Shown here one piece after another: positions 60,466 through 63,818 of a stretch of DNA of 64,000 nucleotides. Source of the stretch: an uncultured Thermogutta sp. (GTDB lineage: Bacteria > Planctomycetota > Planctomycetia > Pirellulales > Thermoguttaceae); the NCBI GenBank assembly GCA_937128505.1, contig CAKZMM010000084.1, positions 186,001-250,000 of the forward strand, in the 5' to 3' direction. Each line of letters begins with the position of its first letter. The stretch's first letter is position 1. Both the position numbers and the translations under genes were made by a program. The notes under the pieces are model-generated. The model was not told the origin of the DNA and ran no database searches. It saw only the letters and a list, made by a program, of their open reading frames with translations.

Positions 60466-62007
60466 ATGACGCGTTGCTCTGAAGACCAAATCTTAGCCCG
60501 GCTGTTGGATTTAGGCGGTCCGGAGTCTCGTTCTGCTTCCTCGGATCAAGCTATCCCAGCAACGGCCGAACATAATAGATCGGCGAAGAATTCTGGCTCC
60601 GATTCGCCCGCGGATTCGGAGAGCGTCCAGGCAAAAGAAGAAGGGCTTGCGGTCCTATTAGAAGGGCTCAATCGGCGGCTTAGTCAAGGTTTGCCGGCGC
60701 GGAAGCCTGCACCTTTTCAGCCCCCTGAGCTTCCGCAAGATCCCGACAATCCCTTTGTTCCCCTGGAGCCTCGCTCATTTGAAGAGGCCCAACTGACGGA
60801 GACAGAGGTCGAGGGTTTGGTGCTTAAATTCCTTCTAGCCCGGGGAGATGGCAGTGGCCGCCAAATTGCCGATCAACTCAAGCTTCCCTTCATCTTGATC
60901 GAGCGGCTGCTGCGTTCGATGAAGCAGGATCAACTGCTTGCGCACCGACACTCGGCACCAATGAACGATTTTCAATACCAGCTAACCGAATTCGGACGCG
61001 AACGTGCCCGACGGCTTGCTACCTATTGTACCTATTTCGGGGCGGCTCCCGTATCTTTGCGCGACTATGTCACAAGTGTGGCAGCACAATCTTTGAGCCG
61101 GCAAAGTCCGACTCAGGAAAGCCTGCGAGCTGCCTTTGCTGACTTAATTATGGACCGCAAATTGCTGGATCGCCTTGGTCCGGCCATTTGCTCGGCGCGA
61201 GGCCTCTTCCTCTATGGTGCGCCCGGAAACGGTAAAACGAGTATTGCCGAGCGGATTACTCAGGCTTTCGGCAAAACCATCTGGATCCCTCGAGCACTAG
61301 GCATTGATGGCGAGATAATTCGCCTTTTTGATCCGGTCAACCATCAGGAAGTTCCCCTCGAGCAAACGGACAGTGTTTATGACGGTCGACCCATCGACAA
61401 GCGCTGGGTACGCATCCGCCGCCCGACGGTTATCGCCGGAGGCGAGCTGACCATGGATTCACTGGAGGTCACGATCAATCAGTCAACCGGCATTTGCGAA
61501 GCACCGTTGCAGCTCAAAAGCAATTGCGGAACCCTTGTGATCGACGACTTCGGCCGCCAGCGCATTCGGGTAGACGAGCTGCTGAATCGGTGGATTGTAC
61601 CGTTGGAAAAACGCTACGATTTTTTGAATCTTCCCAATGGGAAAAAGATTACCGTCCCATTCGATCAATTGATCGTCTTCTCCACCAACCTGGAGCCACG
61701 ATCGTTGGTTGACGAGGCCTTCCTTCGGCGAATTCCCTACAAGATCGAGGTTCCGGATCCCACCGAAGAACAGTTTCGCGAACTCTTTCGCGTGATGGCG
61801 AGCAAACTCGGCTGCGAGTGCCGCGAATCGACCCTGGACTACCTCATCGATCGGCACTATCGAAAGCCAGGGCGGCCCTTCCGATATTGCCATCCCCGCG
61901 ACTTGCTCTTGCAGATCCGGAACTTTTGCGCTTTTCATCAGCGGCCATTCGAACTACGAGAAGAGTATCTGGATTTGGCCGTCGAAGTTTACTTCTCGAT
62001 CATATGA
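60466..62007 (+). CDS. AAA-family ATPase
   Basis: A 513-residue ATPase. Residues 1-110 are low complexity and acidic. A winged-helix-like segment (about 115-180: [26 protein letters not shown]) precedes the ATPase core with Walker [10 protein letters not shown] (251-259), Walker B LVIDD (357-361) and sensor-like [17 protein letters not shown]. It resembles planctomycete ATPases of unknown function. A GGAAAG ribosome-binding site precedes the ATG. The long noncoding stretch and CRISPR array downstream do not indicate a partner. Confidence 0.85.
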
Positions 62008-62325
62008 ACCGCACACAGCGGTAAAGAAAAAACCCACCGGCTGATTATTCGAAACTCTGTTTCCTTAAGGAAAAAAGGCTCGGGGGTGCGCGAACTTACT
62101 GCCGAGACACTTTCTGCACTTCGAATCCTTCGTTAAAAAAAAGGATCTTCAGTCCCTCGCTCTCGGCACGTCTAATCTCCACGGGAGTTCCCTTGGTTGA
62201 CGGCCGCCTTCCGGCGTTTGAGCCCAGGTTTTTGCGCCGGTAACCCACCTGCATACAGCGTTTGCTTAACCGGGCAAAACCCTGACACACACTCTGCTAA
62301 TTCTTCAACAGTTTTTGAGATGCTT
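62008..62325. other. Spacer before the CRISPR array; possible leader
   Basis: About 320 bases without an accepted gene. If the array is read left to right, this stretch would hold its leader, but no cas genes lie beside it. A minus-strand ORF (62096-62290) is unconvincing. Confidence 0.4.
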
Positions 62326-62721
62326 ACACTCTCCCACGCACGACGGGTTGGTTATCGCATACGCCGCGCGTCGATTTCGGCAGAACAGACATTCCCATGC
62401 GCATAAGGGGGAGGTCTCGCGTCTTTAGGGATTGGTGATTTCGCGCGGGATACTCCCATGCGCATGAGGGGCAGGTGCTCAGCGTAGTGGGCATACTCAA
62501 CCGGGGTCAGATACCCCCATGCGGATGAGGGGGAGGTAAACGGGCGTTGAACCTAGCACGCGCGTCGTCAGATACTCCCATGCGCATGAGGGAGAGGTAT
62601 CAACGCAAATCAATCGCGGCGTTTTGCAAAAGGTGCTCCCTTACGCATGAGCGGGAGGTGCCTCGAGCGCTTTAAACGGCGAGGTTGCGCTCGGACACTC
62701 CCTCGGCCACCAGTAGGAGGT
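62326..62721 (+). CRISPR. Small orphan CRISPR array, type I-E-like geometry
   Basis: Five clear 29-bp repeats end at 62415, 62476, 62537, 62598 and 62659, an exact 61-bp period. Spacers between them are 32 bp and unrelated. The consensus contains CTCCCATGCGCATGAGGG with an internal palindrome. Two further degenerate repeats flank them at the same register: one at about 62326-62352 (61 bp before the first clear repeat) and one at 62693-62721 (62 bp after the last). That gives 7 repeats and 6 spacers of 32-34 bp. Repeat length, 61-bp period and hairpin suit type I-E. No cas gene is in the window. Confidence 0.82.
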
Positions 62722-63818
62722 GCGCCACCGCCAAAACCGTGCGTCCCATAAGCCTCTGTTCTAAAATCCCCATTGCCGCCTAAATTTTTCCCTCAGCCCG
62801 AGTTGGTCTTCGGCAGCCGATCCCGCGGGGCAAAACCGCAATGGAAAAGCTTTAAAACACTTGCAGGCAAATCCTCACTCGGGCCTTGCAAACCGCTCCG
62901 GGGTCCATTCCGGGCTGCGAAACCATTCCATCCGTTCACGCGTCGATCGGCCGTTTTTTTTGACTGTTTTCCTCAATCCTCGTTATTGGAAAAGTTTCGC
63001 TCATCGGAAAACGCGTAAAGTTCCGTATGGTCGCTAAAACAAGTTAATCTTCTTAAAGTGGAATCCACAGACCATACGAAACTAATCCAAAGAGGTGCAC
63101 TACTTTTATGATTGTGTGCTGAACGAGTTTTCAGAATTCCCTGGACAAGGTTGCCCTAAACCTCGCCGACAGGAGGACGAGCCGCACAGTGCCCGGATCG
63201 GCTTCGAACACGCTCAGAGCTTCTCGGAGCACTAACCCCCTTAGACTGAGTTTGCCGACAGAAAACCTGCGGTTTTACACAGGCCACGGCCGTACAAAGA
63301 TTGGTTAATGGCGTAAGGCCAAATTGAGTCACGAAAAATAGGGCGCGATACCACCGAACATTCTACCCAAAGTTGCTAATGATTGTGAGTCTTGGAACTG
63401 CTGATTGAAGGCCGGTCGTTGACAAAAAACAGGAGGGAAATCCCAAGGCCATAGATTCGTTAAGATCGATCAAGCTAGCACGTTTCGGGATTTGGCGGTT
63501 GCCAGAGGCGAACGTGGTTTGTCTATTTTGCTGATTTTCACTGTTTTCCAACCCAGAAAACCGCCGATTCTTTAATAACGGTGCGGGAAATCAGGTGGTT
63601 ACCGCGCCAACACGGAGAGAACACCTGGTTGTTGCAGCCCTGACCCAGGCGTTGGCTTTCGCCGCGGTGGTGCTGGCAAGTAAACGATGTAACCTGTGAG
63701 CGGGGCCAGACCGCCGGACGGTGTTGACGACGTAGGGCAAGCCGATGATGCCGGTGGGAACAATCCGGCACTTTGCAACCGCCGAATCGTTGCTGACAAG
63801 GATAATCGGAGAACCCGC
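62722..63818. other. Gene-less region after the CRISPR array
   Basis: About 1.1 kb with only short unconvincing ORFs. No cas gene, repeat or tRNA was recognised. Confidence 0.5.

What the first reader, a model, noticed from the sequence alone, without database searches (positions are those of the whole stretch)
62326..62721. Orphan CRISPR array with strict 61-bp period and decayed repeats at both ends
Five clear repeats of 29 bp are spaced exactly 61 bp apart with 32-bp unrelated spacers. Two more degenerate repeats extend the same register on either side (one with a 2-bp deletion, one with a 33-bp spacer). The geometry matches type I-E, and the repeat has a CCCATG-CG-CATG core that can fold. 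Decay at both ends and the absence of any cas gene within the window suggest either a relic or an array served in trans by Cas proteins encoded elsewhere.
Basis: seen in the sequence. Interest (0 to 1): 0.7.

Follow-up and report, generated by a model that had tools for sequence, protein, structure and literature searches.

The report
Decayed orphan type I-E-like CRISPR array
This is a small, mutated leftover of a bacterial CRISPR immune memory bank, of the common I-E kind, sitting far from any cas gene in a genome that has a complete I-E system elsewhere with a different repeat; it is a fossil of an ordinary kind.

Summary
Window 62387-62659 has five 28-29-nt repeats exactly 61 bp apart with unrelated spacers; one more degraded repeat lies at each end (62324-62352, 62693-62721). 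No cas gene or remnant was found near it, but the genome holds a complete I-E operon (contig C102) with its own array, plus a type III-B locus with Cas1 and a reverse transcriptase (C122). The resident I-E repeat differs from the orphan repeat (13 of 29 positions shared). At the canonical I-E stem positions live repeats pair 6/6, the orphan copies only 1-5/6. No two copies are identical, no leader is visible, and no spacer has a convincing target. The repeat occurs as an array in no other genome of the family (119 searched) or of a phylum sample (392). Best reading: a decayed relic of a former, separate I-E array, probably non-functional. New member of a known kind; low interest.

The parts
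62324..62352 (+). R0, degraded repeat, 18/29 to consensus, register shifted by -2 bp
62387..62415 (+). R1 repeat, 26/29
62448..62476 (+). R2 repeat, 27/29
62509..62537 (+). R3 repeat, 27/29
62570..62598 (+). R4 repeat, 28/29 (closest to consensus)
62631..62659 (+). R5 repeat, 24/29
62693..62721 (+). R6, degraded repeat, 19/29, register shifted by +1 bp
62353..62386 (.). spacer 0 (34 nt, between R0 and R1), no match
62416..62447 (.). spacer 1; a 21-nt match to a viral tape-measure-like gene (L062) does not extend and is read as chance
62477..62508 (.). spacer 2, no match
62538..62569 (.). spacer 3, no match
62599..62630 (.). spacer 4, no match
62660..62692 (.). spacer 5 (33 nt), no match

Best explanation
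A relic type I-E-like CRISPR array. Shown: repeats of constant length, unrelated spacers of constant length, the 61-bp period of live I-E arrays of the same genome and order, similarity to I-E repeats, no cas genes nearby, and mutated repeats. Inferred: it was built by a former I-E adaptation machinery whose repeat differed from that of the resident system (an earlier locus now lost, or an array brought in by horizontal transfer). When its cognate Cas1-Cas2 and Cas6e were lost it stopped growing, was no longer kept uniform by copying of the leader-end repeat, and drifted: substitutions in every copy and small indels beside the two outer copies. It most likely no longer yields working crRNAs.
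For: Exact 61-bp register over five copies, 29 conserved and 32 random columns. Live I-E arrays beside cas2 in this genome and its relatives have period 61 (now and then 60 or 62) and 28-29-nt repeats. A Thermoguttaceae I-E array (L060, beside cas7-cas5-cas6e-cas1-cas2-like frames) has GTTGTCCCCATGCACATGGGGGTGAACCG, which shares the CCCATGCRCATG core and 17-19 of 29 positions. Summed similarity to 12 I-E repeats exceeds shuffles of the repeat in both orientations (159 and 182 against 120 +/- 14). Decay: all copies differ; stem at the canonical positions 6/6 in eight live repeats, 3-5/6 in R1-R5, 3/6 in R0 and 1/6 in R6. Singleton: one locus in the genome, no array in 119 family genomes or 392 phylum genomes.
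Against: No spacer target was found, so a memory of invaders is not shown. Orientation is unresolved: stem register and the 28+33 layout favour the + strand, overall similarity to I-E repeats slightly favours the - strand. Degradation at both ends is unusual, since degenerate repeats are expected mainly at the leader-distal end. The consensus itself has one unpaired position in the stem, and in other registers single copies pair better (R3 6/6 on the - strand). Non-function is inferred, not tested.
Confidence: 0.85

Rival explanations
1. The array is still used: it is transcribed and processed in trans by the resident type I-E Cas6e and Cascade encoded on contig C102.
For: A complete I-E operon with open frames for cas3, cse1, cse2, cas6e, cas7, cas5, cas1 and cas2 exists in the genome. 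Orphan arrays served by cognate Cas proteins supplied from elsewhere are known: orphan I-F arrays of E. coli act when I-F cas genes enter the cell (PMC8616872).
Against: The resident repeat GTTCTCCCTGCACACGCAGGGATGATCC matches the orphan repeat at only 13 of 29 positions, and the stem is imperfect in the orphan copies. No promoter-like site was found around it and no similarity to the resident leader.
Confidence: 0.07
2. Not a CRISPR array: a tandem set of protein-binding sites or regulatory elements with fixed 61-bp spacing (about six helical turns), where selection holds the sites and not the DNA between them.
For: The repeats have a palindromic core (CATGCGCATG); the block lies in a 1.7-kb intergenic region before a helix-turn-helix/response-regulator gene.
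Against: The exact 61-bp register, repeat length and I-E-like repeat sequence are the I-E signature seen in the same order. The block is absent downstream of the same neighbour gene in five relatives, where gene order differs, and absent from the family and phylum samples, so no conserved regulatory role is seen.
Confidence: 0.05
3. A degenerate array kept as a source of crRNA-like regulatory RNA, as in CreA or CreR mini-arrays.
For: Degenerate repeats are a feature of such elements (own knowledge).
Against: Those elements lie within or beside the cas operon and have one or two repeats close to the cognate repeat (own knowledge); this one is on another contig, has seven copies, and a non-cognate repeat.
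Confidence: 0.03

Closest known systems
Live type I-E arrays of the same genome and order (C102/L009; L059, L060; G002, G019, G020, G079, G081)
   Same: 61-bp period, 28-29-nt repeat, hairpin-type repeat with a C-rich and a G-rich arm, unique spacers
   Different: Live repeats are uniform, 6/6 paired and lie beside cas2; here all copies differ, the stem is imperfect and no cas gene is near
Orphan / isolated degenerate CRISPR arrays reported across bacteria (reviewed in PMC8616872)
   Same: Array without cas genes nearby, read as degeneration of a former system
   Different: No difference of principle; degradation at both ends rather than one is the only oddity

Membership tests
CRISPR array | Direct repeats of constant length at regular spacing | tested here: met
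   Five copies at exactly 61 bp, outer copies within 2 bp of register
CRISPR array | Unique spacers, unrelated to one another | tested here: met
   Spacer-to-spacer identity at shuffle level
CRISPR array | Repeats near-identical within the array (living array) | tested here: not met
   72-90% pairwise identity; outer copies 18-19/29; this argues for a relic, not against CRISPR origin
CRISPR array | Spacers derive from mobile elements | tested here: inconclusive
   No credible match in phages, plasmids or as exact 20-mers in IMG/VR; one 21-nt chance-level match; low power for decayed spacers
CRISPR array | Leader with promoter at one end | tested here: inconclusive
   No sigma-70 promoter-like site in 62000-63000 and no similarity to the resident leader; other promoter types are not covered
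Type I-E array | 28-29-nt repeat, 32-33-nt spacer, period 61 | tested here: met
Type I-E array | Repeat sequence similar to I-E repeats | tested here: met
   18-19/29 to L060/G020 (+) or 20/29 to G019 (-); above shuffles
Type I-E array | 6-bp stem with 4-nt loop at repeat positions 6-21 | tested here: not met
   4, 5, 5, 5, 3 of 6 in R1-R5, 3 and 1 in R0 and R6, against 6/6 in eight live repeats; only the imperfect stem remains
Type I-E system (locus) | Adjacent cas3-cse1-cse2-cas7-cas5-cas6e-cas1-cas2 | tested here: not met
   None in the window or 12 kb beyond; complete set on contig C102 with another repeat
Functional CRISPR | Processed crRNAs | not testable with these tools
   Needs small-RNA sequencing

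The most novel reading that the evidence does not exclude
The orphan array is still expressed and its repeats, too diverged for defence, have been taken over for another role, for example as decoy or regulatory RNA for the resident I-E or III-B Cas proteins.
Probability: 0.04. Interest if true: 0.55.

Novelty: new member of a known kind. Interest (0 to 1): 0.15.

Why it matters
It suggests that this planctomycete lineage once carried an I-E array with a repeat unlike that of its present I-E system, so I-E systems have been replaced or exchanged there. Otherwise it is an ordinary relic.

Tried and rejected
Conserved repeat element: rejected, single locus in the genome and absent from relatives. 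Same-site comparison in relatives: gene order downstream of the neighbour gene is not conserved, so no direct empty-site comparison was possible. Plasmid hit to a Deinococcus replication gene (H7, E 0.004) over R2: inside a coding gene, no repeat series, read as chance. Viral 20-mer hit of spacer 1 (L062): does not extend beyond 21 nt, chance. Single 22-mer hit in G109: no repeats around it, a few such hits are expected by chance in that much sequence. Rfam scan: nothing above threshold; the one weak match is below its gathering score. Two-copy pattern over 84,980 species genomes: none with the orphan core; a looser pattern gave three arrays of the CCCATGCACATGGGGG kind.

Full report
What is there. 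The window lies on contig C84 (302 kb) of a 5.58-Mb, 198-contig genome (98% complete). Five repeats with consensus AGATACTCCCATGCGCATGAGGGGGAGGT start at 62387, 62448, 62509, 62570 and 62631, exactly 61 bp apart. In the 61-column register the first 29 columns are conserved and the next 32 are not; spacer-to-spacer identity is that of shuffled letters. Two degraded copies extend the series, at 62324 (18/29, interval 63) and 62693 (19/29, interval 62); no other + strand site of the 64-kb window reaches 18. Further outward the register holds nothing above 12/29.

Is it type I-E. I collected I-E arrays independently by searching 397 genomes of the order for the I-E type Cas2 family and reading the repeats beside the hits. 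They have 28-29-nt repeats with a 61-bp period, like this array. The resident array of this genome, GTTCTCCCTGCACACGCAGGGATGATCC, has period 61, so 28+33; the orphan block can be read the same way (62388-62415 plus 33). The orphan repeat is not the resident one (13 of 29 at best), but it shares the core CCCATGCRCATG and 17-19 of 29 positions with GTTGTCCCCATGCACATGGGGGTGAACCG, the repeat of I-E loci in L059, L060 and G020. Against the whole set it scores above shuffles in both orientations, with the - strand a little higher, whereas the hairpin register and the 28+33 layout favour the + strand. I leave the orientation open, leaning to +.

Where are the cas genes. None in the window or 12 kb beyond. 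The genome has a complete I-E operon on C102: cas3, cse1, cse2, cas6e, cas7, cas5, cas1, cas2, confirmed by Pfam, followed by an RNase H-like gene and an array that runs off the contig end. It also has a III-B (cmr) locus with Cas1, Cas2 and a reverse transcriptase on C122, whose repeat (CGCGCAATTCGCGGGATCATTTGGATGAGATTGAAAC) is unrelated. One HD-domain Cas3 was found, on C102.

Is it alive. Every repeat differs from every other; the core copies carry 1 to 5 changes from the consensus, the end copies about 10. At the canonical I-E stem positions, eight live repeats pair 6/6; the orphan copies R1-R5 pair 4, 5, 5, 5 and 3 of 6, and R0 and R6 3 and 1 (in other registers some copies do better, R3 on the - strand reaches 6). 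No promoter-like site and no leader similarity were found. A living array is renewed by copying the leader-end repeat, which keeps repeats uniform (established knowledge of CRISPR adaptation); this one has not been renewed for long. Spacer searches gave no credible target in phages, plasmids or IMG/VR, nor elsewhere in the own genome or in 59 relatives. That is expected for old, mutated spacers and is weak evidence either way.

Is it shared. The repeat with up to 3 mismatches forms an array only here among 119 family genomes; one isolated site elsewhere is at chance level. It occurs only here in a phylum sample of 392. A two-copy pattern over 84,980 species genomes found no array with the exact core (the own genome may be left out there).

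Verdict. The finding is real and the interpretation right in its main point: a decayed, orphan, type I-E-like CRISPR array. Orphan and degenerate arrays are a well-known class (PMC8616872; PMC12814883), so interest is low.

Noticed in passing
L009:234-1055 (-), and L044, L045, L046, L048, L049, L050, L051: A PF13482 RNase H-like gene lies just after cas2, between cas2 and the array, in the I-E locus of this genome, and homologues (33-47% identity) lie beside cas2 in seven of the other 16 I-E Cas2 loci found in the order. It may be an exonuclease that trims spacers before integration (inference).
   Followed up: partly
L010 (G000:C122:16000-34745): Type III-B (cmr) locus with Cas2, a 361-aa Cas1 and, directly after it, a 520-aa reverse transcriptase (RVT_1), so possibly spacer acquisition from RNA.
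   Followed up: partly
window 63019-63083: A 14-bp inverted repeat (93%) with 37 nt between its arms in the same intergenic region; not repeated elsewhere in the genome.
   Followed up: partly
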